Shown here: one piece after another, positions 7,996-64,000 of the stretch
How the letters are laid out: each line of letters begins with the position of its first letter
How positions within the stretch are numbered: position 1 is the stretch's first letter
NCBI RefSeq assembly: GCF_002127325.2
Contig: NC_035448.2
Coordinates: 89,284,753 to 89,348,752, forward strand
DNA: 64,000 nucleotides
Source of the DNA: Helianthus annuus
Lineage: Eukaryota > Streptophyta > Magnoliopsida > Asterales > Asteraceae
Reading direction: 5' to 3'
Position numbers and translations under genes: made by a program
The notes under the pieces: model-generated
The model's database searches: none
Seen by the model: only the letters and a program-made list of their open reading frames with translations
What the model was told of the DNA's origin: nothing

Positions 7996-8316
7996 GCACG
8001 TGCACATAATTGGACTTGCACACTGACACGAGCCCAACTAATTGGGCCGGATAAGTGGACTTGATTACATCTTTGCTAATTGGACTGCTTATCTGGTTGG
8101 GCTGATATGTTGTTATGGGCTATTATTATGATTGGGCCGAACACTTAGATTGTTTATCGGATTGCTGATACGTGTACGTGTTTGCCATGATTATACGTGA
8201 TACAATATACGTGCTATATACGAACCTGACTTATGTGATAACTTTGTTAGGACGTGGTTGACCACTGTTAGTTCAAGAACTCTCTCTCTCTTTGTGTATC
8301 TGCCGAGCAACCCAAG

Positions 8317-8822
8317 GTGAGTTCACACAGCCAAGGCATGGGGTTCCCAGGGTGGGAATGGGATTTAATGAAATATACGTACATACTTAGTTAACGGAAC
8401 TTAATGATATGAGTCCTCAGGGTGAGGATGGTGAATGATAAGATACGGCTAGACTAGTATACCTACTTGAACAGATCTTCGCACACACGCCAAGGGTTGG
8501 CTGCGATAATTATGACTGATCTTCGCACACATGCCTCGGGAAGGCTGCGAACTAAACATGTTAGAACTTCGCACACATGCCAGGGTGGCCAGCGATACAA
8601 ATATACATAGTCTAGGATATTTGGGAGTATTAACCCAAATCTTCGCATACATGCCGAAAGGGCCCGCGATGCAAACCAATACTATACATGAACAATGAAC
8701 GAACTAATACGATGCATGATTAGATGAACGAACGCAATGCTTGCTATACCATTTCTATTACTGAACTTACTTTCTGTGAACTCGCTCAACTAGTTGTTGA
8801 CTCTCTGCTGCATGCCTTGCAG
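8317..8822 (+). promoter_or_regulatory. Candidate leader intron in solo LTR H
   Basis: The donor-like CCCAAG|GTGAGTTC lies at 8317 and the acceptor-like CATGCCTTGCAG ends at 8822. The exon edges (GAGCAACCCAAG and GACC...GGAGCTTGC) match the same sites in A, and similar ones in D and F. Splicing is inferred from sequence and positional conservation only. Confidence 0.5.
8477..8669 (+). repeat. Four-unit hairpin array in solo LTR H
   Basis: Units begin at about 8477, 8521, 8568 and 8641, each starting CTTCGCA(C/T)ACA(T/C)GC. Each can fold TCGC against GCGA, with an inner stem that differs between units (CCAA with TTGG, GCC with GGC, CCA with TGG). The paired changes are what a conserved nucleic-acid structure would give. 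Confidence 0.75.
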
Positions 8823-9619
8823 GACCATAGGTACATAGTGGAGCTTGCACAGGGAGGAGCAGGTCGTTGTGGGCAAAGGATCGTGAATGCTTTTTCAACA
8901 CTTATGATATTTCATACGTTAATACTTATGTTTGGGTTTTACTTAAATGCTTCCGCTATACTTAACTATAATACACGTTCAATATGATTGGTGGTTAAGA
9001 TCCTGGTCATGTCACGCTCCCAAGCGGTGATACTCCGCAGGTGGATTTTTGGGGGTGTGACACGCACAAGAGGCCCACTCGTACAAGGCTCCGGGTCGCA
9101 CAAGGGGAGTCTATTCGCACAAGGTATCTCAGTCGCACAAGATGTCTGTTGATTTGTTATTTGGGCCGTATGTGTATATAATGGGCTGATTTAATGTGGA
9201 TCGCACAATGTGATGTTTCTTGAATTACTGTTGGGCCTCAAAGCCCAAAGACCGACCGCACAACCCAATTCGGACCGCACAAGTCACTTATGTTATTTGT
9301 TTGGGCCGGATATGTTAAATTGTTCGCTTATACGTTGGGCCGGGGATTTGTTGGGCTTAGACACTTAGATCGCACAAGATGGTTGGGCTCGCACAAGCTC
9401 AATGGCTCAACCATCCGACTCGCACAAGTTGAGAATGTTATGTTATGATTGCTACGTGGGTTGCCATGATCAATACGTGTTAGTAACGTGTTAACTTGTA
9501 TGAAACAAACGTGTATTATTTAAGTCAAGACCTGACTTGTATGGTAACCCTACTAGGACGTGGTTGACCAACCCTAGTTCAAGAACCCTTTCTTTTGAGT
9601 ATCTGCCGAGCAACCCAAG

Positions 9620-10189
9620 GTGAGTTCACACTCTTACCAAGGCATGGGATTCCCGGGGTGTTGGGAATGGGATTAAAAGGATAAGGTTGAATAGATTCAT
9701 ACGAATACCATTACTAGACTACCATACCATCGTCCTCGGTTGTGCAGGACACACACGTGCAATCTACGTGCACATATACTTACTACTATCCTCGGTTGTG
9801 AAGGATACCTATACATATCACTATCCTCGGTTGTGAAGGATACTTATACTTATCACTATCCTGGATGTGAAGGATACTTATACGAATTACTATCCTCGGA
9901 TGTGAAGGATACTTACGTAAAACCTACGTAAACCCCCACGTACCCTATCCTCGGTTGTGAAGGATACTTACGTAAATCCTATGTAAACTTGTACGTATTA
10001 CTGTTCTCGGTTGGGAAGAACACATATGGTTACGCATAGTCTAGTGGATTAATAACATGGGAAGCCCCCACCAATAGAAACCAATATCGGCCCAGTAGAG
10101 CCACATGTTACATACGGACTTACTGTTACGCTTTTACTTACTGTGAACTCGCTCAACTAGTCGTTGACTCTCTGCTGCATGCCTTGCAG
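9620..10189 (+). promoter_or_regulatory. Candidate leader intron in the 5' LTR of A
   Basis: Donor-like CCCAAG|GTGAGTTC at 9620 and acceptor-like CATGCCTTGCAG ending at 10189 enclose 570 bp. The same pair lies at 31837-32407 in the right LTR. An earlier donor-like CCG|GTTAGT is at 6216. Confidence 0.5.
9732..10021 (+). repeat. Seven-unit hairpin array in the 5' LTR of A
   Basis: Seven units share a core CTCGG(T/A)TGTG between complementary arms. Most arms are TATCCT...AGGATA, the first unit is GTCCT...AGGAC and the last is TGTTCT...AGAACA, so both arms have changed together. The fourth unit (near 9858) has lost two bases of its loop in this copy. Confidence 0.8.
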
Positions 10190-17455: not shown

Positions 17456-17514
17456 AAAAATATAATACATGTATATTTTTTTATATAAATATATATTATA
17501 AAAATACATTCTAA

Positions 17515-17650
17515 ATACGGTATACCTACACGTATAATACAATATACCTACACGTATAATACGGTATACCTACACGTATAAATACGGTATACCTACACGT
17601 ATAATACGGGATACCTACACGTATAAATACAGTACACGTACATGTATAAA
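17515..17650. repeat. Tandem repeats of TACACGTATAATACGGTATA in the LTR of E
   Basis: Five to six imperfect copies of a 23-24 bp unit containing CACGTATAA and CGGTATACC lie in a row. The other LTR has the same array near 28275-28410. Confidence 0.85.
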
Positions 17651-18047
17651 GCACACAAATACAAGTATACATACGGTATATGTATAAAGGATTCTAGTAC
17701 ATGACGATATACACACATACACTTGTTGAAGTGTACTCTCTCACTAAGGTTGTATACATACGACAACGTATTTCGACGTTAAAAATAAATATTTTTAACA
17801 CTCTTTACACTTATATTTGTGTAACAAATATAAAGTCATGAACCAAGGTATACATATGAAACAAGTGCCAACATACTACTAAAAATATACAAGTGTTCCA
17901 AAAACTATATGAAAATAATAAACGTTCAAGATGAACAACGAGTACAAGGTCTAGGAAAGACCGACGTGTCTAATGAGTTAGAACCCTTGTAGGTTGACTC
18001 ACGCTTACGGAACACGGTTGCTAGAGCTTATTGCTGGACGCAATACA

Positions 18048-18516
18048 GTGAGTTCATGTCCCCCTTTTCTTTTAACGTTTTGGTTTACAACTTTCGGGGG
18101 GAAATACATGTCAAACATAGGTATGGTTAAGTTATGGAATGAACTCTTAGATCATGTGAGCATAGGCTGAAACTGAGGTGCCATTAATCCTTTTGAGGAC
18201 CAAGGAACAAAGGTTAGATCTAATGGGTACGGGCGAGCCCCACTCACGGTCCAAGGGTGACCACTAGAGTGCTGTTGTGTCCATCGTCGAGAGTTCGACA
18301 CTTAAATTGCCTACGCGGGTTGAGTACCTCCTATGTCGTCACATATATTAATGTCCTTGCAAAACATTAATGATCAACATGTTCATAGACGCTTTACATA
18401 CCTACTTATAAACTAAACTTTCAAATGTTTTTGAGATTCATTTGATGCGCATTACACATAAAACGCATGAACTCACTCAACTTTTGTTGATGTTTTCAAA
18501 CTCACATGTATTTCAG
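18048..18516 (+). promoter_or_regulatory. Candidate leader intron in the LTR of E
   Basis: Donor-like ACA|GTGAGTTC at 18048 and acceptor-like CATGTATTTCAG ending at 18516 enclose 469 bp. The following exon edge, AAACTAATGGAACTTGGG, resembles that of F and, more distantly, A. The equivalent pair in the right LTR is 28810-29278. A CATGTCCCCC...GGGGG...ACATG foldback lies just inside the donor. Confidence 0.5.
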
Positions 18517-20526: not shown

Positions 20527-23500
20527 ATGCCGCCAAGACGAAAAACCAACACAAACCCCCTACCGAGAACAGAAGCCGAACTCAATGAGCGCATCTCGCA
20601 GGCTATTGCGCAGTACGAAGCCAACCGCTCCGAGCAAAGCGGTGGTACATCAGGAAACAATCCCCCTGCCGGTAATGTTAAATCGTCTATGACACATTAC
20701 AATACTCTCGTATATTCTATTTGTACTATGTCCATGCTCATTCACGGTTTGTGGTTGTAAATGTTTCAGGTTGCACGTACAAGCAGTTTTTGGACTGCAA
20801 ACCTCTGAACTTCGACGGCACAGGAGGTGCCGTAGCATTTGTACGTTGGGCCGAGAAGACTGACTTAGTCCTGAGAATGAGCAAATGTCTTCCTGAACAA
20901 AGGGTTACCTACATTTCCGGGTTGTTCTTGGACGGAGCACTTTCATGGTGGAACCTACAGGTTCAGACAAAAGGAGAAACTGCTGCGTATGCCATGAGCT
21001 GGGACGAGCTCAAAGAACTGATGAGGAAAAAGTATTGTTCGAGGGCTGAGATCCAGAAACTTGAAACCGAGTTTTGGAATTTAAAAATGATCGGATCTGA
21101 TATTGCTGGGTATGTACAACGCTTCCACGATTTGTCAAGGGTTGTTCCCTACTTGGTGGAACCTGAGTTTAAGCGGATTGAGAGGTTCATCTGGGGACTT
21201 GCTCCTGAGATTCTGAGCATGGTTACTTCTTCCAAGCCCCCTACAATCAGCGAGGCAATCGACTTGGCTGTCGCCCTCACCGAGGAGGCTCTTCGTTTAG
21301 ACAAGTTTTCAAAGCCAGGCTCTAACAAAAAAGAGACTCATGTGGAGTCTTCAAGCGGCAACAAGAGAAAGTTTTCAAACTTAAAGAAAGGCACTCAAGC
21401 AAACAACGACAACTGGAATGCGAACAAACGAAGGGAAGTGAACCCAACTCGTGGTACTAAAGCTTATGGAGCCACTAATGAGGCTAGTGGTAAAGGGTAT
21501 TTGGGTTCCAAGCCTAAGTGTGATAAGTGCAAGTTTCACCACAATGGTCGATGTCCAAGAGCTAAGTGTGACAAATGTGGAAAGGAAGGGCACAACAAAG
21601 AAACATGTTGGGTAGGAACTGGAGGAAGAAATATAAACCGAGGAGGAAACAACAACAACAATCAGGGCGGAAACAATAACAACAACAACCAAGGTAGAAA
21701 TGGTAATGGACGAGGCCAAGGTTGTTTTGGCTGCGGAGACTTAGGGCACTTTTTGAAGGATTGTCCTAAAGAAAATCAAGCCCGTGGAAGAGTCTTCACG
21801 ATTGGAGCACGTGAAGCGCGTCAGGACCCGAACGTAGTTACGGGTACGTTCCCTATAAACCAACACTTTGCATCCATTCTGTTTGACACTGGCGCCGACT
21901 TTAGTTTTATATCTATAGAATTTAAGAACATACTTAGTCTAGAGTCGAGTAAACTAGACGTCCCGTATTCTATAGAATTGGCGAATGGAAAATTAGTCGA
22001 AGCGGATGAGGTTATCAAGGGTTGTACACTCGAGCTTGGAGAGCGAAATTTTCTTATCGACTTCTTACCCGTTGAGTTGGGCAGCTTTGACGCGGTTGTT
22101 GGAATGGATTGGTTATCCGACAATCGGGCAGAAGTGGTTTGTCACGAAAAGAGCATCCGCATCCCATTGCCGAATGAAGAAACACTTATAATCCATAGGG
22201 AGAAACGCGAGACACCTCTACGGATCATAAATTGCATGAAGGCGCAAAAGTGTCTTCGAAAAGGCTGTATAGCCTTCCTCGCCCACGTAGTTGACAAGGA
22301 AACCAAAGAGCCGAGGCTAGAAGACATCCCTGTCGTGAAAGAATTTCCAGAAGTCTTTCCAGAAGACTTGCCTGGACTACCTCCGCAACGTCAAGTGGAG
22401 TTTCGAATTGATTTGGTGCCAGGAGCGGCACCAGTGGCGAAATCACCATATCGGTTAGCTCCGTCTGAAATGCAGGAGTTATCTACTCAGCTGCAAGAGC
22501 TGCTAGATAAAGGATTTATTAGACCGAGTTTCTCACCTTGGGGAGCTCCGGTATTATTTGTCAAAAAGAAAGACGGCAGCTTTCGCATGTGCATTGATTA
22601 TAGGGAGTTAAACAAGCTGACCATCAAGAACCGATATCCCTTACCGCGAATCGACGACTTATTCGATCAACTACAAGGTTCCAGCTACTACTCCAAGATT
22701 GATCTGAGATCGGGTTACCATCAGTTGAGAATACAGGAAGAAAGTATCCCCAAAACGGCTTTTAGGACTCGTTACGGACATTACGAGTTTCTTGTTATGC
22801 CGTTCGGCTTAACCAATGCACCAGCAGTGTTCATGGACCTCATGAACCGTGTGTGTAAGCCGTATTTGGACAAGTTTGTGATTGTGTTTATCGATGATAT
22901 CCTAATATACTCGCGAACCAAGGAGGAACACGAGCAACATTTGCGAGCTATTTTGGAACTCTTGAGAAAGGAACAACTGTATGCAAAGTTTTCGAAGTGC
23001 GAATTTTGGATTCGCGAGGTTCAATTCCTAGGTCATGTGGTAAATGAGAAGGGAATTCACGTCGACCCAGCAAAGATTGAGGCAATTAAGAATTGGGAAG
23101 CGCCTAGAACCCCTACTGAGATACGACAGTTTCTGGGATTAGCGGGCTATTATAGACGATTCATAGAGAACTTTTCAAAAGTTGCTCAACCGCTAACGTC
23201 CCTAACGCAAAAAGACAAGAAATTTGATTGGGGCGAGAAACAACAGGCGGCGTTTCAACTGCTGAAGGATAAACTTTGTGACGCGCCTATTTTGGCCTTA
23301 CCCGACGGTACCGATGACTTCATGGTTTATTGTGATGCATCGCGTCAAGGTCTTGGTTGCGTGTTGATGCAACGGGACAAAGTCATTGCGTACGCGTCTC
23401 GTCAATTAAAGGTGCATGAGAAAAATTATACCACGCACGATCTGGAGCTAGGTGCGGTGGTATTCGCGTTAAAGATCTGGCGTCACTACTTATATGGTAC

Positions 23501-25166
23501 TCGTTGTACAATCTTCACAGACCACAAGAGTTTGCAGCACATATTCGATCAGAAAGATTTAAATATGCGGCAACGACGATGGGTCGAGTTATTGAACGAT
23601 TATGATTGTGAGATAAAGTATCATCCGGGCAAGGCGAACGTTGTGGCGGATGCCCTGAGCCGCAAGGAACGTATTAAACCTCTAAGGGTGCGAGCCTTGG
23701 AGATGACCATACATAATGATCTCACTTCTCGGATTCACGATGCTCAACAAGAGGCGCTTAAACCAGAAAATATACCAGCCGAATCCTTACAAGGAATGGA
23801 GGCACAATTGGTGCCAAAGGAGGATGGAACACTGTACTTTATGGGACGAATTTGGGTCCCGTTCTTTGGCGAACTACGAACAATTATCTTGGATGAGGCA
23901 CACAAGTCAAGGTACTCTATACATCCGGGTTCGGATAAGATGTACCAAGATTTAAAAGAATTTTATTGGTGGCCTAAGCTTAAAAGCGACATTGCTGTTT
24001 ATGTCGGTAGATGCCTTACCTGCGCCAAGGTTAAGGCGGAATATCAAAAGCCTTCAGGGTTGCTCCAACAACCTGAAATTCCCGTATGGAAATGGGAACA
24101 AATCTCAATGGACTTCATTACTAAGTTACCCCGAACCTCAAAAGGCCATGATATGATTTGGGTAATTGTAGATCGACTTACAAAGTCCGCACATTTTCTA
24201 CCGATCAGTGAGAAGGATAGCACTAGGAAACTGGCGGAAATATATCTCAAGGAGATTGTGGCACGACATGGAGTGCCTATTTCTATTATATCAGACCGAG
24301 ATGGTCGATTTGTGTCTAGGATATGGCAATCATTCCAAAAGGCATTTGGATCCCAACTGAATCTTAGTACGGCCTTTCACCCTCAAACGGACGGCCAAAG
24401 TGAACGAACGATACAAACTTTGGAGGACATGTTACGTGCTTGTGTGATGGATTTGGGTGGAAACTGGGATACTCACTTGCCCTTAGTGGAGTTCTCGTAC
24501 AATAATAGTTATCACACTAGCATCAAGGCCGCCCCGTTTGAAGCATTATATGGGCGAAAGTGTCGGTCCCCGCTATGTTGGGCGGAGACCGGGGATAAAC
24601 AACTCATTGGTCCAGATTGGGTACAAGAAACCTCAGACAAGATCATGCAGATACGAGACCGTATCAAGATGGCTCGCGATAGACAAAAGAGCTACGCCGA
24701 CAAACGACGCAAACCTTTAGCTTTCGAGGTCGGAGACATGGTATTGTTAAAAGTCTCGCCTTGGAAGGGCGTAGTAAGATTTGGTAAACGTGGAAAGTTG
24801 AACCCACGTTACATTGGACCCTTCAAAATCCTGGAAAAGATCGGAACTGTTGCATACAAGTTAGAACTACCAGAAGAACTGAGCAATGTACACAACACGT
24901 TTCACGTGTCAAATCTCAAGAAAAGCCCTACACAAGAGACGGTTGTCATTCCAGCAGATGAGATACACGTCAACGAAAAACTTCAATTTACTGAAGAACC
25001 TGTTGAGGTTACGGACTGGAAGGTCCACAAGACACGCAGAAATCGTAGGAGGCTAGTTAAAGTTCGTTGGAACTCGCGTCACGGTCCCGAGTATACGTGG
25101 GAACGTGAAGACCAAATGAAATCCAAGTACCCTCACCTGTTTCCAGACCCCCCCTGCAACCGGTAG
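20527..25166 (+). CDS. gag-pol: Gag-pol polyprotein of element E (chromovirus), with one small intron
   Basis: The frame starts at the ATG at 20527 (MPPRRKT). Removing the 98-bp intron at 20672-20769 gives about 1513 residues with no stop. In order it has: gag capsid-like domain (about 50-250); two CCHC knuckles, [14 protein letters not shown] and [14 protein letters not shown] (about 315-380); aspartic protease DTGA near 421; reverse transcriptase with [12 protein letters not shown] and FIDD near 757; RNase H with the YCDAS aspartate near 904; integrase with an HHCC zinc region and a core whose second aspartate (SDRD, near 1224) and glutamate (near 1260) have the usual D-x35-E spacing; and a C-terminal chromodomain (about 1460-1509). 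All catalytic residues I checked are present. Without splicing, translation could only start from an ATG inside the intron (20721). Confidence 0.95.
20672..20769 (+). other. Candidate 98-bp intron in gag of element E
   Basis: GCCG|GTAATGTT at the left and TGTTTCAG|GTTGCACG at the right are good plant splice sites. They join in phase, with the codon GGT split after its first base, linking the 48-codon first exon to CTYKQFLDC. Inside the intron the first-exon frame meets a stop, while the second-exon frame opens only from an ATG at 20721. The gag of D is continuous at the equivalent point. Confidence 0.75.
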
Positions 25167-28200: not shown

Positions 28201-29615
28201 AAGCCCAAGGTAAAAAAAAAATATAATACATGTATATTTTTTTTATATAAATATATATTATAAAAATACATTCTAAATACGGTATACCTACACGTATAAT
28301 ACAATATACCTACACGTATAATACGGTATACCTACACGTATAAATACGGTATACCTACACGTATAATACGGGATACCTACACGTATAAATACAGTACACG
28401 TACATGTATAAAGCACACAAATACAAGTATACATACGGTATATGTATAAAGGATTCTAGTACATGACGATATACACACATACACTTGTTGAAGTGTACTC
28501 TCTCACTAAGGTTGTATACATACGACAACGTATTTCGACGTTAAAAATAAATATTTTTAACACTCTTTACACTTATATTTGTGTAACAAATATAAAGTCA
28601 TGAACCAAGGTATACATATGAAACAAGTGCCAACATACTACTAAAAATATACAAGTGTTCCAAAAACTATATGAAAATAATAAACGTTCAAGATGAACAA
28701 CGAGTACAAGGTCTAGGAAAGACCGACGTGTCTAATGAGTTAGAACCCTTGTAGGTTGACTCACGCTTACGGAACACGGTTGCTAGAGCTTATTGCTGGA
28801 CGCAATACAGTGAGTTCATGTCCCCCTTTTCTTTTAACGTTTTGGTTTACAACTTTCGGGGGGAAATACATGTCAAACATAGGTATGATTAAGTTATGGA
28901 ATGAACTCTTAGATCATGTGAGCATAGGCTGAAACTGAGGTGCCATTAATCCTTTTGAGGACCAAGGAACAAAGGTTAGATCTAATGGGTACGGGCGAGC
29001 CCCACTCACGGTCCAAGGGTGACCACTAGAGTGCTGTTGTGTCCATCGTCGAGAGTTCGACACTTAAATTGCCTACGCGGGTTGAGTACCTCCTATGTCG
29101 TCACATATATTAATGTCCTTGCAAAACATTAATGATCAACATGTTCATAGACGCTTTACATACCTACTTATAAACTAAACTTTCAAATGTTTTTGAGATT
29201 CATTTGATGCGCATTACACATAAAACGCATGAACTCACTCAACTTTTGTTGATGTTTTCAAACTCACATGTATTTCAGGAAACTAATGGAACTTGGGTGC
29301 TGGTGTTTATTATGAAGCTTTTGGATTACAAGTCATCGATGTCATCCCTTTTGAAGGGTTTGGTCCATATATCTCATCTTCAATGAGATATAGGATGCAA
29401 AGCCTTATGTTTTAAACTTATGTTGTACTCGTCTTTTGTAAAACTTATAACTTTTGTCGTTTGGCATTTTAAACAAACTTATGATGTGTAATATTTTACT
29501 ATGTCAATGGATGAACATCGTATGTTTTTATTCATGTAGTTGTTTACGTATATCGTATGCAATGAGAACTAATCAAGTTCACACCGCGCGCTTCCGCTAA
29601 TGAGCGGGTGTGACA
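25211..29615 (+). repeat. 3' LTR of element E
   Basis: This 4405-bp copy matches 14448-18853 apart from about six substitutions noticed by eye and differences in A- and T-run length. Confidence 0.95.
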
Positions 29616-30252: not shown

Positions 30253-32694
30253 TGTGACAACTCGTACTTTAGACCTATTTTGTAACGCTATGTGCTTATG
30301 TGAAAAATATTATTTAATGATTGTTATGACTATGTGCATTGTGTTATGTAATGTGTGTGTATATTTAACGGCCCGAACCGCACAACACGAATTGATCGCA
30401 CAAGCCCATTTGGGGCACACCTTGTAATCGGACACCATGGGGCAGCCGAGTTGGGCTCGGCCCACTCCCCTTATACACAAACAAACACCCTCTAGGGAGT
30501 TGTTTCATCATTCGGTTGTTAAACACACACACACACACACCAAAACCCTACTTTCGAAGCCGGCGGCCCTTCCATCCCTCGAAGCTTTTGACTCGGTTGA
30601 TCCCATTTTCCTCTAATCCGGTTAGTATGTTAAGTGTTTGTTATTATTTGATGTTATGCTTGATTGATGAAGGTGTGTTATATATGATTGAATTCAATCC
30701 GCTCATGCTAGTGAAATCGTTATCATAAGGTTGCATGATGTTGTGTTATAGCTATTAATGACAAGGTGAATCGGCTCATATGTGTATAGTGATAATAATC
30801 GGATTGAACTATCATTGAATATGGTGTGGGATGAGTTAATTACAGGATTTAAGATGGAATAAATTGTAATCGGATTTGCATGATTGCTAATCGGCTAGAA
30901 TATGATGTTGCTGGATTGTTACACAACGATGTGGATGGGTTAATTGATTTAATCGAATGTATGCTAATGGTTCAAGATTCATGCTAATATGTTTTAGTGT
31001 GATGATTTCTGTTCTTGTTGTTCATATTAGGGTTCATATGAATTGCTTAGAGAATGCTTAGTTTGATCGATTGTATGTTACAAGAATAGTTGGAAAATTG
31101 TTAATTGATAAGGGTAAATAAGGAAACTAATTGACTATATTAATGTGTGCAACCGATTTGCATGAAATCCGGGACTTTATATCAAACACACATCTGTTCG
31201 TACAAATCTCTTGACCGCACAAGACACTTCGGTCGCACAAGAGTAAACACACAAGCCCACTCGTACAAGGTCTCTTGGTCGCACAAGAGGCCCACTCGTA
31301 CAAGGCTCCGGGTCGCACAAGGGGAGTCTATTCGCACAAGGTATCTCAGTCGCACAAGATGTCTGTTGATTTGTTATTTGGGCCGTATGTGTATATAATG
31401 GGTTGATTTAATGTGGATCGCACAATGTGATGTTTCTTGAATTACTGTTGGGCCTCAAAGCCTAAAGACCGACCGCACAACCCAATTCGGACCGCACAAG
31501 TCACTTATGTTATTTGTTTGGGCCGGATATGTTAAACTGTTCGCTTATACGTTGGGCCGGGGATTTGTTGGGCTTAGACACTTAGATCGCACAAGATGGT
31601 TGGGCTCGCACAAGCTCAATGGCTCAACCATCCGACTCGCACAAGTTGAGAATGTTATGTTATGATTGCTACGTGGGTTGCCATGATCAATACGTGTTAG
31701 TAACGTGTTAACTTGTATGAAACAAACGTGTATTATTTAAGTCAAGACCTGACTTGTATGGTAACCCTGCTAGGACGTGGTTGACCAACCCTAGTTCAAG
31801 AACCCTTTCTTTTGAGTATCTGCCGAGCAACCCAAGGTGAGTTCACACTCTTACCAAGGCATGGGATTCCCAGGGTGTTGGGAATGGGATTAAAAGGATA
31901 AGGTTGAATAGATTCATACGAATACCATTACTAGACTACCATACCATCGTCCTCGGTTGTGCAGGACACACACGTGCAATCTACGTGCACATATACTTAC
32001 TACTATCCTCGGTTGTGAAGGATACCTATACATATCACTATCCTCGGTTGTGAAGGATACTTATACTTATCACTATCCTCGGATGTGAAGGATACTTATA
32101 CGAATTACTATCCTCGGATGTGAAGGATACTTACGTAAAACCTACGTAAACCCCCACGTACCCTATCCTCGGTTGTGAAGGATACTTACGTAAATCCTAC
32201 GTAAACTTGTACGTATTACTGTTCTCGGTTGGGAAGAACACATATGGTTACGCATAGTCTAGTGGATTAATAACATGGGAAGCCCCCACCAATAGAAACC
32301 AATATCGGCCCAGTAGAGCCACATGTTACATACGGACTTACTGTTACGCTTTTACTTACTGTGAACTCGCTCAACTAGTTGTTGACTCTCTGCTGCATGC
32401 CTTGCAGGACCCTAGGTACTAATGGAGCTTGCACAAGGAGGAGCAGGTCGTTGTGGACAAATGGATCGTGATTACTTATTAAACACTTATGACGTTTCAA
32501 ACATTAATACTTATGTTGGGTTTTACATTAATGCTTCCGCTACATTTACTTATGTTGGTTTTGATAAACACCTTTCGTATTGATGGATAACTATTACTAC
32601 TTATTTACATGTTCAATATGATTGGTGGCTTGATCCTGGTCATGTCACGCCTCCAAGCGGTGGTACTCCGCGTGTGGATTTTGGGGGTGTGACA
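30253..32694 (+). repeat. 3' LTR of element A
   Basis: This uninterrupted 2442-bp copy runs from TGTGACAACTCG to GGGGGTGTGACA. It contains the hairpin array at 31949-32239 and the candidate intron at 31837-32407. Comparison with the left LTR defines the H insertion exactly. Confidence 0.94.
31949..32239 (+). repeat. Seven-unit hairpin array in the 3' LTR of A
   Basis: This is the same array as at 9732-10021, with complementary arms around CTCGG(T/A)TGTG. The fourth unit is complete here, which shows that the left copy suffered a small deletion. Confidence 0.8.
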
Positions 32695-36492: not shown

Positions 36493-37460
36493 GTGAGTAC
36501 ATAGTTCCCCTATTTTACTGTTTTCAATTGTTTTGGGGTGATTCATATGTACAAAACGAATTACATGGTTTAAATGATGATTTCAAAAACGATTAAGATG
36601 GTTTATACTAAACTAATAACGATTTCAATAAGGTGAACAAGACTTGTTGATTGTGATTACATAACGAATGACATTCATTAGCTTTGGCCGAGCCGACCAG
36701 TATTAGGTTATGGTACCATAGGATCTGACAAATCCCGTTATCAGACTACACCCATGGTTATGTGTGGGGGTTATGTAGGTAACGACCGAACCTGATGATT
36801 GTTAACTTACCCTTTGGTGGTTTGTTAATACGAAACGAGAAACGAGTTAGACGAGTCACGAAGGTTTGAATGTTGTTAACGAGACGACCAAAAAGTAGTT
36901 TCACTATTAAAACGAATACGATTTTGGGACGAGTTAAACGATTTGAAACGAGATACACGATTTGAAATGAGTTAAACGAATTAAACGATTTGTTTTGGGT
37001 AGTGATTAGATAATGGGACGGGTGTAGTATGATAGAATCATGGTAGATACGCCGTTGGTACATCTTATATATAAGTGCTTCTATCATGTTACATTGCGTG
37101 TCATTATTTAGTTCACTGGGGAAACGATTTTGAAACGAAGTCACACAACGAGGTTTTCGAAACGATATAAACCATACGAGTTTTATTAACGAGTTTTCTC
37201 GAGATGTTTACAAGTTGTTATACTAAAACAAATATTTTTGAGTTAAGAATCATGGCTACGAGATTTTATAAACTATAACCAATTTGATTTGAGTTGGTTA
37301 ATTTTGTTGCAATACACTTTTCAAAACAAGGTTTGTATTTTGACTCTTGTAGTCTAACAAGATACTGCAACATATAAACGAGCCATGAATCCGATACTCC
37401 CATAAAACCTATGTACTCGCCAGCATTTCTTTGCTGACTTTATTTTTACATATGTTTCAG
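36493..37460 (+). promoter_or_regulatory. Candidate leader intron in the LTR of C
   Basis: Donor-like CCCAA|GTGAGTAC at 36493 and acceptor-like CATATGTTTCAG ending at 37460 occupy the same relative place as in the other gypsy LTRs. At 968 bp it is the longest of the set. Confidence 0.45.
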
Positions 37461-37709
37461 GTGGTATTGCTTGATGTTGCTTGCTAGGAAGCGAGTTCAC
37501 TTAGGATCTGGACAAGGCCTTAGTGACTTAAAAACAATTATAAACAATATGTAGTTTGTTTGGTTTAATGACAATGAACATTTCCTAATATTTCAATAAA
37601 ACAAAACTTTTAACTACCATGGTTGTGGAACAATAATTCTGTCGCCTCACTCCCCGGCGTTTCCGCCGCGGTTTGTTGTTTTAACGCGGCCGGGGTGTGA
37701 CAGAAGAGT

Positions 37710-37963: not shown

Positions 37964-40105
37964 TGTGACACCCCGCGAAAACGCTTAACAAAACTAGCTT
38001 CCTCAGTGACTGTTTGCTAAATTTCGGGACGAAATTTCTTTCAAGTTGGGGATGATGTGACAACCCAAACTTTCGAGATCCGTAACGTTACTCTATGCCA
38101 TTTATAATTCTGTTAAACTTAAACGTAACGTGCAATGGTTGTGTGCAATGGTTGTGTTTATTAGTTTACACCTATGATTAGGGCCACTGTTATTAGTCGT
38201 TACATTGGACCGGTCACTTGTACCTTTGGGCCGCTAATCACTGGAGTCCAACTCTAATTAGATAATGGGATTATAATGGGCTTGTCATGTGTCGAGTGTA
38301 GGCTTGGGCTGCCTTCAAATGATTTGAAGCTGCTTAGCCTCGAATTGTTTTGTCCAATTTAGTGGGCTGAAGCCCAATTAGCATAATGATAATTATAACC
38401 GACCTAATATTGTGTTGCATATAATTCATGCATTATATTAGGCTAATTGGTTAAATAATAATAACTCAAAACTAACTCCACCCTCTCAAGATCTCAAACA
38501 CACCATTAGCAGGTTCCCCCCCCCCCCTGTTCGAGTTTACATCTTGATTAATCAGGCTCCCGGTTAGTAACTTTCACTTATTAAATTACATGTTTGTGTG
38601 GTAGTGGATGTTTAGTTGTTGGTTATATGCTGAATATACTAATCTTATGTATGGGTGTTATGTTTTGTTGCAAGCTGTTCACTAGGTTAGAACTCGTGAT
38701 GATCCGTTAAATGTTGGTACTGATTATTGATGTTAAAACCTGATAACTATAAGATTTTGGGTGTGTTAATCGGTGGGTAACTAAAATTGTTATGTGATGA
38801 TATGATCTTTGTGTGCGATATGGGTTAAGAATACAGTGGTATGTGAACCGATTGTTTGGGGGGTTAGGGATCCATAGAATCATCTATAATGGTTAGGACT
38901 TGTAATTGTTATTGAGTTTCTATTAGTGCTACCATGTGATATGTTAAGGAAAAATGGCGGCCATGTGCCTTATACCTTTTGGTGTTTACGAGACTCTATG
39001 TGTTAATGAATGTGCCCATCATAACTTGTATTGATTGTAGACAACTTATTAATGAGGCCATGTGATGGATTAAGTGGATTAATATCATGTGCAAATGTCA
39101 GAATGCAAGAAAGGCCCACATAAAACATTAAAAGATGATTAAAATTCCAATGGTAAACGTTTGATCATGTGCAAGATGGGACCGGGTGTGGACCATGACT
39201 GGTTCATTATTATTGTTCACAAATTGTGGTTCTTGCTAGGATTGTTTGATAGTCATATAGGAGTTATTAATAAACACCGGTTAAACAAGTGTGGGCTGGG
39301 TAAACCGGAAGCCCAACAGAAGTATGATGTGGGGTGATCAAGTGTTGGGCTGTGCGAGGGTAAGGTTCTACGGTTATAAGGGTCGTTGTTGGGCTAGTTG
39401 TAACATACTTGGCTGGTTAAACAGTAAACTAACGTTGGGCTGGGTAGTTTGGATTGAGCTAGTGTTGGGCCGGTTGATGTAATATGGTAGTTCACTGATC
39501 TTATGTTGAACACTAGTTGATTGGGTTTAGTATGTTGATTTGGGCTTTAACTAGTTAATCGGGTAAAAGGTTGGGTTAATTGAACAAAGGCCATCTCGAT
39601 CACACACAACTTGTGTGGATTCGTTGAACTAAGTCGGGCCGCACACGAGATTAAAACACACAGGCCGGCTGCATAAGTGTGTTGGGCCGAGAAGTATGAA
39701 TGGGCCATGTACATCGGTGTCCAGTTTCACCACTTTGTGCAGCCATACGAAACCGCTAGACCGCACTCTCGAGCGAGTATATTGTTGGGCTATAAATGTG
39801 CATGTACATATGGACTGCTGTGATAAATGTTTGTGAGCAACATGCTAGTATACGTATACTGTTATCTGATTTACTTGAACATGAACTTCAAACACCTACT
39901 GTGCGACGTTACGATGAATGTTATGGATCAATGTACTGTGTGATTAACAGCTACGACTTGTGTATATGTGCTTTACTTGTATGCTACTTATGTGACGTGT
40001 ACGTGGAATAAGTGATCTATATGTAACTGACTGTCTCCGGTAATCCCGATAGGATTTGATTGGTCAATTGTTTAGCGAGCATTTAATCTACCGAGCAAAC
40101 CAAAG

Positions 40106-40567
40106 GTGAGTTCACTGCACTTTTCTCAAGCATGCGTCCCGGTGGTTTGGGACAACTGGTAAACATTTGGAAGGGAAACATTGGGTAAATAACTTAATCG
40201 GTTTTGGTTATTGCCTGGAGGGCAATGAGGGTGATTAGTTGATAGCGCTATTAGGTGGGAAACCTCACACCGGGCCGTAAGGACGGGCGTGAACTAATTA
40301 TCTGGGTATGGCTATGGTTGTTAGAGGCACACTCCTCGGATACATATGGGCACTCTCCCTAGGGTATCTAACGAAGGCAACATAGCAAACGGTCGTTAAG
40401 GGGTACCCACTCCCCGGATACTTATGGGCACACTCCCTAGGGTATCTAACATGAGCAACATCGTAACGCAACATTAAATCGCATTAACATACATATGGTA
40501 ACATAACTTGTTAACAAAACCTTGAACTCACCAGCGTAGTCTGACACACTTGTTTACATGCTTGTAG
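40106..40567 (+). promoter_or_regulatory. Candidate leader intron in the LTR of F
   Basis: Donor-like CAAAG|GTGAGTTC at 40106 and acceptor-like CATGCTTGTAG ending at 40567 enclose 462 bp. The right-LTR pair is 45018-45479. The upstream exon edge, CCGAGCAAACCAAAG, matches those of A, D and H closely. Confidence 0.5.
40334..40450 (+). repeat. Two-unit hairpin repeat in the LTR of F
   Basis: Two units share GGATAC(A/T)TATGGGCAC and CTCCCTAGGGTATC, allowing GATAC/GTATC and GGG/CCC pairing. Further small foldbacks precede them: GTCCC...GGGAC near 40136 and TTGCC...GGCAA near 40212. Confidence 0.7.
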
Positions 40568-55734: not shown

Positions 55735-56020
55735 TGTCACACCCCCAAAATCCACCTGCGGAGTATCACCGCTTGGGAGCGTGACTGACCAGGATCAAGC
55801 CACCAATCATATCGAACATGTAAGTATTATCAAATATAATAAATGTAAACCAATCATTCAATATGATAGGTGTTCAAAACATAATCATAGTTTATAAGTA
55901 TAGCGGAAGCATAAGTACGAAAGCCCAAATGTGTAACATAAGTTTAATAAGTTCAAGACGTAATCCATTCTCCACAACGACCTGCTCCTCCCTGTGCAAG
56001 CTCCATAAATATCTAACGAC

Positions 56021-56500
56021 CTGCAAGGCATGTAACAGAGGATCAACAAACTAGTTGAGCGAGTTCACAGTTAACAGTTCAGTAATAGTTTAGTGTGAGT
56101 AGAAGTATGTTCGTTCGTTTTGTCATGAATCGTATCAGTTTCCATCGCGGCCTCCCAGGCAGGTATGCGAAGATGTTAGGGGGATGTTCATCCCGTGTAT
56201 ATTAGACTAGGTTTATTTGTATCGCGGCCTACCAGGCAGGTGTGCGAAGAATAGTAAATTACAGTTCGCGGCCTTCCAAAGGCAGGTGTGCGAAGTCAGT
56301 CATAATATCGCGGCCAACCCTTGGCAGGTGTGCGAAGATCAGTTCAATAAGTGTTACTAGTCTAGTAGTAGTTCTAACAGTGGAGTATGTACAATAGTTA
56401 ATCAAATCACATCACTACGTTCCCGTATAGATAAGTACCAGTAAATAATCAAATCCCATTCCCACCCTGGGAACCCCATGCCTTGGCTGTGTGAACTCAC
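56021..56500 (-). promoter_or_regulatory. Candidate leader intron in the LTR of D
   Basis: On the minus strand, donor-like CCAAG|GTGAGTTC at 56500 and acceptor-like CATGCCTTGCAG ending at 56021 enclose 480 bp. The pair in the other LTR is 62305-62784. Confidence 0.5.
56145..56337 (-). repeat. Four-unit hairpin array in the LTR of D
   Basis: On the minus strand each unit reads TTCGCA(C/T)ACCTGCC... and ends GGCCGCGA. Outer TCGC pairs with GCGA. Inner stems are GCCAA/TTGGC, GCCTT/AAGGC, GCCT/AGGC and GCCT/AGGC, so unit differences preserve pairing. The other LTR has the same array at 62429-62621, and solo LTR H has related units. Confidence 0.82.
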
Positions 56501-58279
56501 CTTGGTTTGCTCGGTATGATTCACTACGTGCTAGAAATTACTCAATCAAATCCTATATTAAGCACGTATACTTGATCAGTTCATGTTTCGTAATGTTTCG
56601 CATGCAGCATATACCACAAAGTATGTTTGACCGTTAATAACATGCATCACACGTCAGTTAATCATAATCATACAAATCTACGTTTCACATAAAGGCTTAC
56701 TTCAATTTATTCGAACCATACGAAACAGAATCATTCAGTATTAATCAGAGTTATCATGCACACACACCTACTGACATGACTAACGAAGTCTCATGCACAA
56801 ATTACATAGTTAATAACTAGTAGAATTATAATCAACAGGGTTATCAGTTGGAGTTGGTCAATAAATACCACCTCAGTAAAACAACTTGGGCTATATATAT
56901 AACAATATTTACAAGGTCGGGCCTTGTATCATATCATACAAAAGAACTCGGACCTTCACAATTAAATAAACTTGGTCATATGTCCTCATATTAAACTCGG
57001 TCATCACCAGTTAATAAATTCGGACATAAGGCAACATACATATAATAAATCTACACTTCACATGCACTAAAAACAAACATGGCCGCCCACACATGATTGG
57101 ACCAACACCCTATGACACTAGATGTAATTTTCACTTAAATCACTTCATGTGCAAGTCTGACCTAGCCGAAACCTATGAATTATTTTATTTGCTTGGTTTG
57201 CACATGTATAAAGTCAAAAGAATTTATGATATACCCTTGAAGGGCCGCCCCCACCTGCCAATCAAACATCACATGCCCTGCATACTATTTGATGGTCGGT
57301 TCTTTAATATTAGAGGACCAAGCCTCACATCCAATCGGTTGGCCACCCCCATGTCCTATTGGACCGCTATACCTAAGATAGTTGTTCATTGGCCGCAAAT
57401 TATTACCCAAAAGCCAAGTTAATCACAAGCAAATTCAAAAAGATGATGGCTGACATTTGTAAACTCCTCAAAAGCTTATTGGACCAAAATTATGGGCATG
57501 TATTATTTATTAAACAAATTTCGATAACCATCACATTATATTGGCGCATGTATAACAACACAACATTCAAGAATAATATACATGTTGGCCGACAATTTAA
57601 TAAGAACCCACATGTTCCTGACAACGATTCCTAATACACATGCACACCGACAACTACTACAACAAATGATTTAATTGGACCGTCAAGATTTCATAACCAA
57701 CCAAATATCTATACTATCAAGTTGCAATCATCGATTGTCAGGCAAACAGTTAACACCCATATCATAATAGTCAAGTATTGATACAACTATGCCTAATAAG
57801 AGGATTTGATTTACAATAGTGAGACTGTACTAACCGAAGGCAATCGAGATGCTAAAGGAACTCGAAAGAAACGCTTCACGAGAGAGAGGTGCTGTCGTCA
57901 GTTTCAAGGAGGAGTTCTAGGGTTTTGTATTTTGATAATAGTTTCCCCTAATCTAGTATATAGTTTACACCCACAAGTTGGGCCGTAACTGGGCTTTTGG
58001 GCCGTAACATCACTTTCACTTTCTGTTTCGTCGAACCATGATTGACGAGACACTCCTGATTCGTTGTGATGGTTAACTAGTTCAAGAGTTTACTAACCGG
58101 TTCACTAACACATACGTTTTGTCTTTATCGTATAACACCTAACATATTCACAAATCGGGATACAATTCATTAAAGCAAAACATGATTACAAGTCATACAA
58201 ATCACGTATTACAATTTGCACCGGTCAAAGTCAACGTAAATTTATGCGATAGTGTAAGTCGAAAAGTCGAGTTGTCACA

Positions 58280-62018: not shown

Positions 62019-64000
62019 TGTCACACCCCCAAAATCCACCTGCGGAGTATCACCGCTTGGGAGCGTGACTGACCAGGATCAAGCCACCAATCATATCGAA
62101 CATGTAAGTATTATCAAATATAATAAATGTAAACCAATCATTCAATATGATAGGTGTTCAAAACATAATCATAGTTTATAAGTATAGCGGAAGCATAAGT
62201 ACGAAAGCCCAAATGTGTAACATAAGTTTAATAAGTTCGAGACGTAATCCATTCTCCACAACGACCTGCTCCTCCCTGTGCAAGCTCCATAAATATCTAA
62301 CGACCTGCAAGGCATGTAACAGAGGATCAACAAACTAGTTGAGCGAGTTCACAGTTAACAGTTCAGTAATAGTTTAGTGTGAGTAGAAGTATGTTCGTTC
62401 GTTTTGTCATGAATCGTATCAGTTTCCATCGCGGCCTCCCAGGCAGGTATGCGAAGATGTTAGGGGGATGTTCATCCCGTGTATACTAGACTAGGTTTAT
62501 TTGTATCGCGGCCTACCAGGCAGGTGTGCGAAGAATAGTAAATTACAGTTCGCGGCCTTCCAAAGGCAGGTGTGCGAAGTCAGTCATAATATCGCGGCCA
62601 ACCCTTGGCAGGTGTGCGAAGATCAGTTCAATAAGTGTTACTAGTCTAGTAGTAGTTCTAACAGTGGAGTATGTACAATAGTTAATCAAATCACATCACT
62701 ACGTTCCCGTATAGATAAGTACCAGTAAATAATCAAATCCCATTCCCACCCTGGGAACCCCATGCCTTGGCTGTGTGAACTCACCTTGGTTTGCTCGGTA
62801 TGATTCACTACGTGCTAGAAATTACTCAATCAAATCCTATATTAAGCACGTATACTTGATCAGTTCATGTTTCGTAATGTTTCGCATGCAGCATATACCA
62901 CAAAGTATGTTTGACCGTTAATAACATGCATCACACGTCAGTTAATCATAATCATACAAATCTACGTTTCACATAAAGGCTTACTTCAATTTATTCGAAC
63001 CATACGAAACAGAATCATTCAGTATTAATCAGAGTTATCATGCACACACACCTACTGACATGACTAACGAAGTCTCATGCACAAATTACATAGTTAATAA
63101 CTAGTAGAATTATAATCAACAGGGTTATCAGTTGGAGTTGGTCAATAAATACCACCTCAGTAAAACAACTTGGGCTATATATATAACAATATTTACAAGG
63201 TCGGGCCTTGTATCATATCATACAAAAGAACTCGGACCTTCACAATTAAATAAACTTGGTCATATGTCCTCATATTAAACTCGGTCATCACCAGTTAATA
63301 AATTCGGACATAAGGCAACATACATATAATAAATCTACACTTCACATGCACTAAAAACAAACATGGCCGCCCACACATGATTGGACCAACACCCTATGAC
63401 ACTAGATGTAATTTTCACTTAAATCACTTCATGTGCAAGTCTGACCTAGCCGAAACCTATGAATTATTTTATTTGCTTGGTTTGCACATGTATAAAGTCA
63501 AAAGAATTTATGATATACCCTTGAAGGGCCGCCCCCACCTGCCAATCAAACATCACATGCCCTGCATACTATTTGATGGTCGGTTCTTTAATATTAGAGG
63601 ACCAAGCCTCACATCCAATCGGTTGGCCACCCCCATGTCCTATTGGACCGCTATACCTAAGATAGTTGTTCATTGGCCGCAAATTATTACCCAAAAGCCA
63701 AGTTAATCACAAGCAAATTCAAAAAGATGATGGCTGACATTTGTAAACTCCTCAAAAGCTTATTGGACCAAAATTATGGGCATGTATTATTTATTAAACA
63801 AATTTCGATAACCATCACATTATATTGGCGCATGTATAACAACACAACATTCAAGAATAATATACATGTTGGCCGACAATTTAATAAGAACCCACATGTT
63901 CCTGACAACGATTCCTAATACACATGCACACCGACAACTACTACAACAAATGATTTAATTGGACCGTCAAGATTTCATAACCAACCAAATATCTATACTA
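62019..64000 (-). repeat. 5' LTR of element D, cut by the window edge
   Basis: The sequence matches 55735-57716 at a constant offset of 6284 bp. I noticed two substitutions (near 62240 and 62485). It includes the candidate intron at 62305-62784 and the hairpin array at 62429-62621. Confidence 0.94.

What the first reader, a model, noticed from the sequence alone, without database searches (positions are those of the whole stretch)
56145..56337. Covarying hairpin array in the LTR of D, related to that in solo LTR H
Four units keep outer TCGC/GCGA pairing, while inner stems change on both strands together (GCCAA/TTGGC, GCCTT/AAGGC, GCCT/AGGC). H (8477-8669) has four related units with its own paired changes. 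Tandem copying explains the repetition but not the maintained complementarity. The array lies inside the candidate leader intron. It could be an RNA packaging, dimerisation or splicing-control structure.
Basis: partly seen in the sequence, partly recalled or inferred. Interest (0 to 1): 0.78.

Follow-up and report, generated by a model that had tools for sequence, protein, structure and literature searches.

The report
Hairpin array in a retrotransposon leader
Sunflower-like jumping genes carry, inside their terminal repeats, a possible intron whose start site is predicted to be hidden by pairing with a stretch near the intron's end, and several of them fill that intron with rows of small RNA hairpins, which may let the element keep some of its RNA uncut for making new copies.

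Summary
The array is real. On the sense (minus) strand of D, four units at 56145-56336 read TCGC..GCC(N)-loop-(N')GGC..GCGA. The pair N-N' is complementary in 7 of 8 D and H units, with both A-U and U-A. But folding favours this inner stem only in H; in D a shifted register is preferred. The outer stem never varies, so it is neutral. Evidence from the array alone is moderate to weak.

The stronger result lies around it. The six LTR families I identified (A, C, D, E, F, H) each have a putative leader intron of 462-968 nt. In each, the 5' splice site pairs (10-13 bp) with an 'anti-donor' starting 45-57 nt before the intron end. Across families this helix changes on both strands: 92% of cells paired against 18-44% when slid; 4 pairs with two-sided change. 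Four families carry tandem hairpins inside the intron, unrelated in sequence between D/H, C and E; I saw none in A and F.

Best reading: a structured leader-intron RNA domain that hides the 5' splice site, so that some transcripts stay unspliced and keep the whole LTR. Arrays are lineage-specific additions, possibly Gag-binding. Splicing and packaging are inferred; wider sampling was not possible.

The parts
56145..56336 (-). Four-unit hairpin array of element D (3' LTR): units 56336-56308, 56294-56266, 56248-56222, 56171-56145
56021..56500 (-). Putative leader intron of D (480 nt), donor AAG|GTGAGT, acceptor TTGCAG|G; copy in the other LTR 62305-62784
56490..56501 (-). P1 5' strand of D: GGUGAGUUCACA, covering the 5' splice site
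56058..56069 (-). P1 3' strand of D (anti-donor UGUGAACUCGCU), near the intron end
56459..56473 (-). P2 hairpin of D just after the donor, TTCCCA-GGG-TGGGAA (region not more stable than shuffles)
56202..56365 (-). P3 of D: CTAGACTA (56365-56358) and TAGTCTAA (56209-56202; TAGTCTAG in the other LTR) around the first three units; core does not covary
56043..56058 (-). P4 hairpin of D, TCAAC-TAGTTT-GTTGA; its 3' arm overlaps the branch-like motif TTGAT
8478..8669 (+). Four-unit hairpin array of solo LTR H, orthologous to that of D
8317..8822 (+). Putative leader intron of H (506 nt); P1 = 8316-8327 with 8775-8786; P4 8786-8800
8414..8428 (+). Extra hairpin of H, TCCTCA-GGG-TGAGGA; same loop as P2, two stem pairs swapped on both sides relative to P2
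9731..10023 (+). C-type hairpin array (7 units TATCCT-CGGTTGTGA-AGGATA and variants) in the leader intron of LTR C; copy 31948-32240
9620..10189 (+). Putative leader intron of C (570 nt); P1 = 9619-9630 with 10142-10153; copy 31837-32407
40106..40567 (+). Putative leader intron of E (462 nt); P1 = 40105-40114 with 40523-40532; two-unit array about 40320-40450; copy from 45018
36493..37460 (+). Putative leader intron of F (968 nt); P1 = GUGAGUACAUAG 36493-36504 with CUAUGUACUCGC 37409-37420; no hairpin array seen
18048..18516 (+). Putative leader intron of A (469 nt); P1 = 18047-18059 with 18465-18477; no hairpin array seen; copy 28810-29278

Best explanation
The array is part of a structured RNA domain in the long leader (R/U5 part of the LTR) of Ty3 retrotransposons, probably Tekay-like. 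The domain coincides with a putative intron. Its closing helix P1 pairs the 5' splice site with an anti-donor just upstream of the branch-like motif and 3' splice site. While P1 is formed, U1 snRNA should not reach the donor and the transcript stays unspliced. Unspliced RNA matters because the intron lies inside the LTR, so only an unspliced genomic RNA can be copied into a complete new LTR; spliced RNA could serve as mRNA. The hairpin arrays sit inside the loop closed by P1. They differ between lineages in sequence but agree in kind (short stems, mostly G-rich loops), and most likely compact the intron and/or offer repeated binding sites for Gag or a host protein. Shown here: the array, the layout, P1 and its two-sided changes. 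Inferred: that the intron is spliced, that P1 represses splicing, and what the arrays bind.
For: The 6 LTR families identified all have a GTGAGT donor and a YAG|G acceptor. In all 6 the strongest intron-wide complement of the donor is the same site, starting 45-57 nt before the intron end, -17.3 to -20.3 kcal/mol; shuffled introns reach the observed energy in 1-58 of 1000 (whole intron) and 0-6 of 1000 (window -75..-20), over 8 LTR copies tested. P1 on the 6-row alignment: 72 of 78 cells paired (92.3%), 4 pairs with two-sided change; slides of 1-3 columns pair 17.9-43.5%. The donors of F and A pair best with their own anti-donor (F -18.6 against -10.9 to -17.0; A -20.3 against -10.8 to -17.4). 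Array level: D/H pair N-N' 7 of 8; C array 23 of 24 cells paired, 2 of 6 pairs changed on both sides; E's two units swap GAGG/CCTC for GGGG/CCCC. Stem-loop counts exceed shuffles in C (12 and 13 against a mean of about 3; 0 of 300), D (6; 4 of 300) and H (6; 13 of 300). None of 6 spliced-junction sequences (28 bases, up to 6 mismatches) occurs in the window.
Against: No transcript data: splicing is untested. The introns are not U-rich (25-33% T against 28-39% in flanking LTR sequence), unlike normal plant introns. P1 is not always the predicted optimum in longer context: mean pair probability with about 60 nt flanks is H .86, C1 .11, C2 .50, D .93, E .97, but in 849-977 nt it is H 0, C1 0, C2 .08, D .22-.31, E .84 (A and F were not run); forcing it costs 1.6-4.1 kcal/mol in H, C1 and C2. 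E's donor pairs slightly better with the anti-donors of A, H, C and D than with its own. H, C and D are identical in P1, so P1 rests on about four independent versions; shuffles reach the number of two-sided pairs in 50 of 500 and the number of pair types in 162 of 500. Energy alone is not unique: 6 of 26 other GTGAGT sites reach -17.3, 4 of them being the reverse strand of A's and E's anti-donors. In D the fold prefers a shifted inner stem over the named one. P2 regions are not more stable than shuffles (140-279 of 300); P4 is not predicted in E. No hairpin array seen in A and F; E's stem-loop count is ordinary (132 of 300).
Confidence: 0.53

Rival explanations
1. Packaging signal in the intron. 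The arrays are repeated Gag (nucleocapsid) binding hairpins with exposed G-rich loops; because they lie in the intron, only unspliced genomic RNA is packaged. P1 and the array together act like a retroviral packaging signal.
For: In the named register, loops in the D and H hairpins are GGG, TGG or GGT on stems of different sequence (P2, H 8414, units 1-4 of D, units 1 and 3 of H); C loops are CGGTTGTGA-like. D's Gag piece has a CCHC zinc knuckle. In HIV-1 the splice donor is sequestered by long-range pairing and exposed guanosines bind NC (PMC7599994, passages seen).
Against: In two of six families (A, F), which have the intron and P1, I saw no array. No binding data. Array sequences differ completely between D/H, C and E. 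H unit 4 has no G-rich loop. In the register that folding prefers for D the loops change.
Confidence: 0.22
2. Only P1, with the splice-site block, is functional. The arrays are tandem duplications of inverted repeats made by slippage or template switching during reverse transcription; stems look paired because hairpins are good substrates for such copying, and selection on them is weak.
For: No array seen in A and F; arrays unrelated among D/H, C and E. C units 2-6 have identical stems. Covariation inside the C array is weak (28 of 500 shuffles reach the score, 118 of 500 the number of two-sided pairs). The named inner stem is not the favoured one in D.
Against: Copying explains repetition, not double changes in D unit 3 against H unit 3, in C units 1 and 7, and in E's two units.
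Confidence: 0.33
3. DNA-level palindromes: dyad sites for a DNA-binding protein in the LTR, unrelated to RNA.
For: Units contain palindromic GCC..GGC and TCGC..GCGA, which a dimeric protein could bind.
Against: A dyad site does not need its variable centre to stay complementary, nor would it explain pairing of the 5' splice site over some 400-900 nt with two G-U pairs in H, C and D that are pairs only in the sense RNA.
Confidence: 0.06

Closest known systems
HIV-1 core encapsidation signal (splice donor sequestered by long-range pairing; guanosines exposed for NC)
   Same: Donor hidden in a long-range helix in unspliced leader RNA; G's exposed; a layout that could separate unspliced from spliced RNA (PMC7599994, passages seen)
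   Different: Plant Ty3 element; donor and acceptor both lie inside the LTR; no sequence comparison was made; no binding or packaging data here
Spliced plant LTR retrotransposons (Ogre, EVADE, BARE1; sunflower Tyran and Varan)
   Same: Splicing gives unspliced genomic RNA and shorter RNA (PMC12786077, PMC7730604, PMC3735527; passages seen)
   Different: In the passages seen, splicing changes coding sequence (EVADE's protease domain; BARE1's intron in gag; Tyran and Varan isoforms with truncated Gag). Here the putative intron lies inside the LTR leader, with a helix over its 5' splice site
Intron-closing helices in cellular pre-mRNAs (e.g. yeast ribosomal protein introns; recalled, no call)
   Same: Long-range pairing across the intron that changes how splice sites are seen
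   Different: In the recalled yeast cases the helix lies inside the intron and helps splicing; here it covers the donor and should hinder it

Membership tests
Ty3/gypsy chromovirus, Tekay (Del) lineage | Ty3-type Gag and pol with RT, RNase H, integrase | tested here: met
   D ORF pieces: Ty3_capsid, Retrotrans_gag, zf-CCHC, RVT_1, RT_RNaseH, Integrase_H2C2, SH3_Tf2-1; element A the same in one ORF
Ty3/gypsy chromovirus, Tekay (Del) lineage | Chromodomain at the integrase C-terminus | tested here: inconclusive
   Pfam Chromo at E 0.011 (A) and 0.11 (D), below the curated cut-off, placed after SH3_Tf2-1
Ty3/gypsy chromovirus, Tekay (Del) lineage | Placement with Tekay in an RT tree | not tested
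   No tree was made; the listed protein matches carry no lineage name
Spliced LTR retrotransposon | Consensus 5' and 3' splice sites and branch-like motif in transcript sense | tested here: met
   GTGAGT in 6 of 6, YAG|G in 6 of 6, a YTNAY motif starting 26-30 nt before the intron end in 6 of 6
Spliced LTR retrotransposon | Spliced RNA observed | not testable with these tools
   No transcript collection on hand
Spliced LTR retrotransposon | U-rich intron as usual in plants | tested here: not met
   T 25-33% in introns against 28-39% in flanking LTR sequence
Retroviral-type packaging signal | Structured leader RNA with conserved helices | tested here: met
   P1 covariation; few independent versions
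Retroviral-type packaging signal | Binds Gag/NC and directs packaging | not testable with these tools
   Needs experiment
Any Rfam family | Covariance model at gathering score | tested here: not met
   0 matches in the window

The most novel reading that the evidence does not exclude
Ty3 elements of the sunflower family carry a widespread retrovirus-like switch inside the LTR itself: a leader intron closed by a helix over its own 5' splice site and filled with quickly evolving arrays of G-loop hairpins that mark unspliced RNA for packaging. Spliced RNA is translated; only RNA that escaped splicing is packaged and can rebuild a full LTR.
Probability: 0.2. Interest if true: 0.82.

Novelty: new variant of a known kind. 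Interest (0 to 1): 0.6.

Why it matters
How plant LTR retrotransposons divide their RNA between translation and replication is poorly known. A 2025 review says that plant LTR elements generally lack introns and names few exceptions (PMC12786077, passages seen). A conserved helix over a splice donor inside the LTR would be a concrete, testable sorting device. If these elements are Tekay, they belong to the largest LTR family of sunflower (>15,000 copies; PMC7730604, passage seen), which would give many natural variants on which RNA covariation could be measured.

Tried and rejected
Finding more copies outside the window: pattern scans of viral contigs (56 stretches with one match each, taken as chance because each has a single match; 0) and genome contigs (0); protein-based scans of viral contigs (none) and genome contigs (2 stray plant-like pol contigs, L057 and L058). 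In these two I found no donor (up to 2 mismatches), PBS (1) or H/C/D-type anti-donor block (4). The genome search 'own' did not complete.

Rejected or downgraded: a known RNA family. The named inner stem as the favoured fold in D. P2 as strongly supported: it is seen in D, H, C and E, with a T-A to G-C swap in E, but the region is not more stable than shuffles. P3 (CTAGACTA/TAGTCTAG) as evidence: its core does not vary in H, C and D apart from one broken end pair in D's 3' LTR, and the pair is missing in E, F and A. The acceptor hairpin CTGCA..TGCAG, listed for H and C, is not listed for D, E, A or F. A first alignment of D and H units cut some units and one of C1 units misplaced a deletion; neither was used for counts. 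Stem-loop density over the window: the C2 copy holds the highest 300-base count (10), but windows in A's LTRs reach 9 and the H and D introns (4-5) are not outliers. A's intron has 6 stem-loops (19 of 300 shuffles) and F's 8 (115 of 300), none as a tandem array; F's intron holds a 19-base tandem repeat at 36929-36988 in which no stem-loop of 5 or more pairs is listed. Tandem Repeats Finder does not list E's two units; I found them by eye.

Caution on choice: the donors of F and A were picked from GTRAGT-like sites found by script (1 site in F, 2 in A) and the anti-donors were then seen by eye, so the helix guided the choice of intron borders there. The six families are those I identified, not a full LTR annotation of the window. 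The covariation count used 6 hand-cut rows, one per family, out of 10 LTR copies; H, C and D are identical in P1. The pieces typed for it leave out the bases between the strands.

Papers: 10 searches. Searches looked for an LTR leader intron, a hidden splice site or a plant packaging signal: searches listed none, one (immune-cell isoforms), four, twelve of 76. One of the four, PMC5542766, matched only through the vector name LTR1.20 (passages seen). No listed title or abstract start describes such a structure. Most subscription journals are not in the library.

Full report
What is there. The window is a nest of LTR retrotransposons from a sunflower-like plant: among the 120 listed matches to D's pol piece, the closest are from Helianthus annuus and H. 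debilis, several at 89-93% identity. D is a Ty3-type element on the minus strand. Its 3' LTR starts at 55735 (sense end) and its other LTR runs from 62019 past the window end; the two are 99.9% identical over 1982 bases. A primer binding site TGGTATCAGAGCC follows the LTR. H is a solo LTR ending at 9061; the offset between repeated C sequences changes by 2188 bases across it (24405 against 22217), which fits an insertion of H into LTR C (inference).

The array. Read on the sense strand, D has four units, UCGC-AYACCU-GCC(N)-loop-(N')GGC-C-GCGA. H has the orthologous four in the same order. The outer stem and GCC/GGC do not vary, so they are neutral. The next pair inwards is A-U in D1, H1 and H3, U-A in D2, D3, D4 and H2, and unpaired in H4: 7 of 8, a count that 144 of 40320 permutations reach. 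Because D1/H1 and D2/H2 share descent, the clean independent event is unit 3 (U-A in D, A-U in H), plus the differences among units. Sliding the register lowers the pairing to 2 of 4, 5 of 8, 4 of 8 and 4 of 8. Two further hairpins in the same introns have the same loop on different stems: TTCCCA-GGG-TGGGAA in both D and H (P2) and TCCTCA-GGG-TGAGGA in H, which differ from one another by two pairs changed on both sides.

A result against the array reading. When each unit is folded with a few flanking bases, the outer stem forms in 7 of 8 units (pair probability 0.81-1.00; about 0.1 in H4). So in D the letters fit the named stem but the fold does not favour it. Single units have z-scores from -2.16 to +0.31. 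The array alone is moderate to weak evidence.

Related LTRs have other arrays in the same place. LTR C (9620-10189 and 31837-32407) shares the sequence around the donor and acceptor but carries seven units of another hairpin, TATCCT-CGGTTGTGA-AGGATA, with GTCCT/AGGAC at one end of the array and TGTTCT/AGAACA at the other. Pair counts on the C2 copy (7 units, 4 distinct): 23 of 24 cells paired against 40-58% when slid; two pairs with changes on both sides; the shuffle control is weaker (28 of 500 for the covariation score, 118 of 500 for the number of two-sided pairs). LTR E (40106-40567) has two units of a longer double hairpin with GAGG/CCTC in one and GGGG/CCCC in the other. In A and F I saw no tandem hairpin array; A's intron still has 6 stem-loops, a number that 19 of 300 shuffles reach.

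The closing helix. The donor GGUGAGUUCACA of H, C and D is complementary to UGUGAACUCGCU just upstream of the acceptor, 12 pairs including two G-U. I then looked for the same in the other LTRs that I had identified. E has GGUGAGUUCA with UGAACUCACC. F has GUGAGUACAUAG with CUAUGUACUCGC. A has AGUGAGUUCAUGU with GCAUGAACUCACU. In every one of the six families the best complement of the donor in the whole intron lies at the same place, starting 45-57 nt before the intron end. Shuffled introns reach the energy in 6 (H), 9 (C1), 17 (C2), 16 (D), 58 (E), 1 (F), 1 (A) and 4 (A2) of 1000; shuffles of the -75..-20 window in 5, 0, 3, 5, 6, 0, 1 and 1 of 1000. Across the six families the helix has four pairs changed on both sides (columns 10, 13, 14 and 15 of alignment A2) and two changed on one side; 72 of 78 cells pair; slid versions pair 18-44%. 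Against shuffles, 2 of 500 reach the paired share, 5 of 500 the covariation score, 50 of 500 the number of two-sided pairs, 162 of 500 the number of pair types. H, C and D are identical here, so the helix rests on about four independent versions. The donors of F and A prefer their own anti-donors; the donor of E does not.

After the anti-donor comes a small hairpin whose 3' arm overlaps or abuts the branch-like motif: TCAAC..GTTGA in H, C, D and A, CAGCA..TGCTG in F, not predicted in E. A YTNAY motif starts 26-30 nt before the intron end in 6 of 6. This hairpin is suggestive only: shuffles fold as well in 1 to 203 of 500 among the five that have it.

What speaks against. The intron is not U-rich. 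In an 860-nt fold the donor of H prefers an upstream partner, and P1 is not the optimum in C1 and C2 either, though forcing it costs only 1.6-4.1 kcal/mol; A and F were not folded in this way. Other GTGAGT sites in the window reach similar energies in 6 of 26 cases; four of those are the reverse strand of A's and E's anti-donors, the other two are one site in the two copies of A. Splicing is unproven. In a sunflower survey, Tekay members were absent from the expressed set (PMC7730604, passage seen), so the RNA may be rare in the tissues sampled.

Mechanism. Shown: array, layout, conserved closing helix. Inferred: P1 competes with U1 for the donor. Because donor and acceptor are both inside the LTR, a spliced RNA could not restore the full LTR, so the element gains from keeping part of its RNA unspliced. 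The arrays lie in the loop closed by P1. Their agreement in kind but not in sequence, with mostly G-rich loops, fits protein-binding hairpins, and Gag is the natural candidate, by analogy with HIV-1, where the donor is sequestered by long-range pairing and exposed guanosines bind NC (PMC7599994, passages seen). That I saw no array in two of six families argues that the arrays are an addition rather than the core.

Known or new. No Rfam family matches at the gathering score. Splicing in plant LTR elements is reported for Ogre, EVADE and BARE1 and for sunflower Tyran and Varan. None of my ten paper searches listed, by title or abstract start, a leader intron inside an LTR closed by a helix over its own donor; only the top of each listing was shown, and most subscription journals are not in that library. 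I therefore rate it a new variant of a known kind.

Noticed in passing
36493-37703: LTR F, a divergent LTR, gives the strongest independent test of the closing helix (two pairs changed on both sides relative to H, C and D).
   Followed up: yes
17514-17649 and 28276-28411: Tandem array of about six 22-base units (AATACGGTATACCTACACGTAT) in the LTRs of element A, upstream of its donor.
   Followed up: no
20721-25166: Element A has a single open gag-pol ORF of 1481 aa and LTRs of about 4.4 kb that are 99.8% identical: a young insertion.
   Followed up: partly
L057 (NZ_VCHY01000055.1) and L058 (NZ_LZSV01000036.1): Two small contigs in bacterial assemblies (Labilibacter sediminis, Mycobacterium sp.) encode Ty3 pol 52-60% identical to that of D; they look like plant contamination.
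   Followed up: partly
8277-8282: Upstream of H's donor an exonic GAACTC is an alternative partner of the donor in a longer fold; a possible switch with the anti-donor.
   Followed up: partly
36929-36988: A 19-base tandem repeat (3.2 copies) inside the putative intron of F, without listed stem-loops.
   Followed up: no
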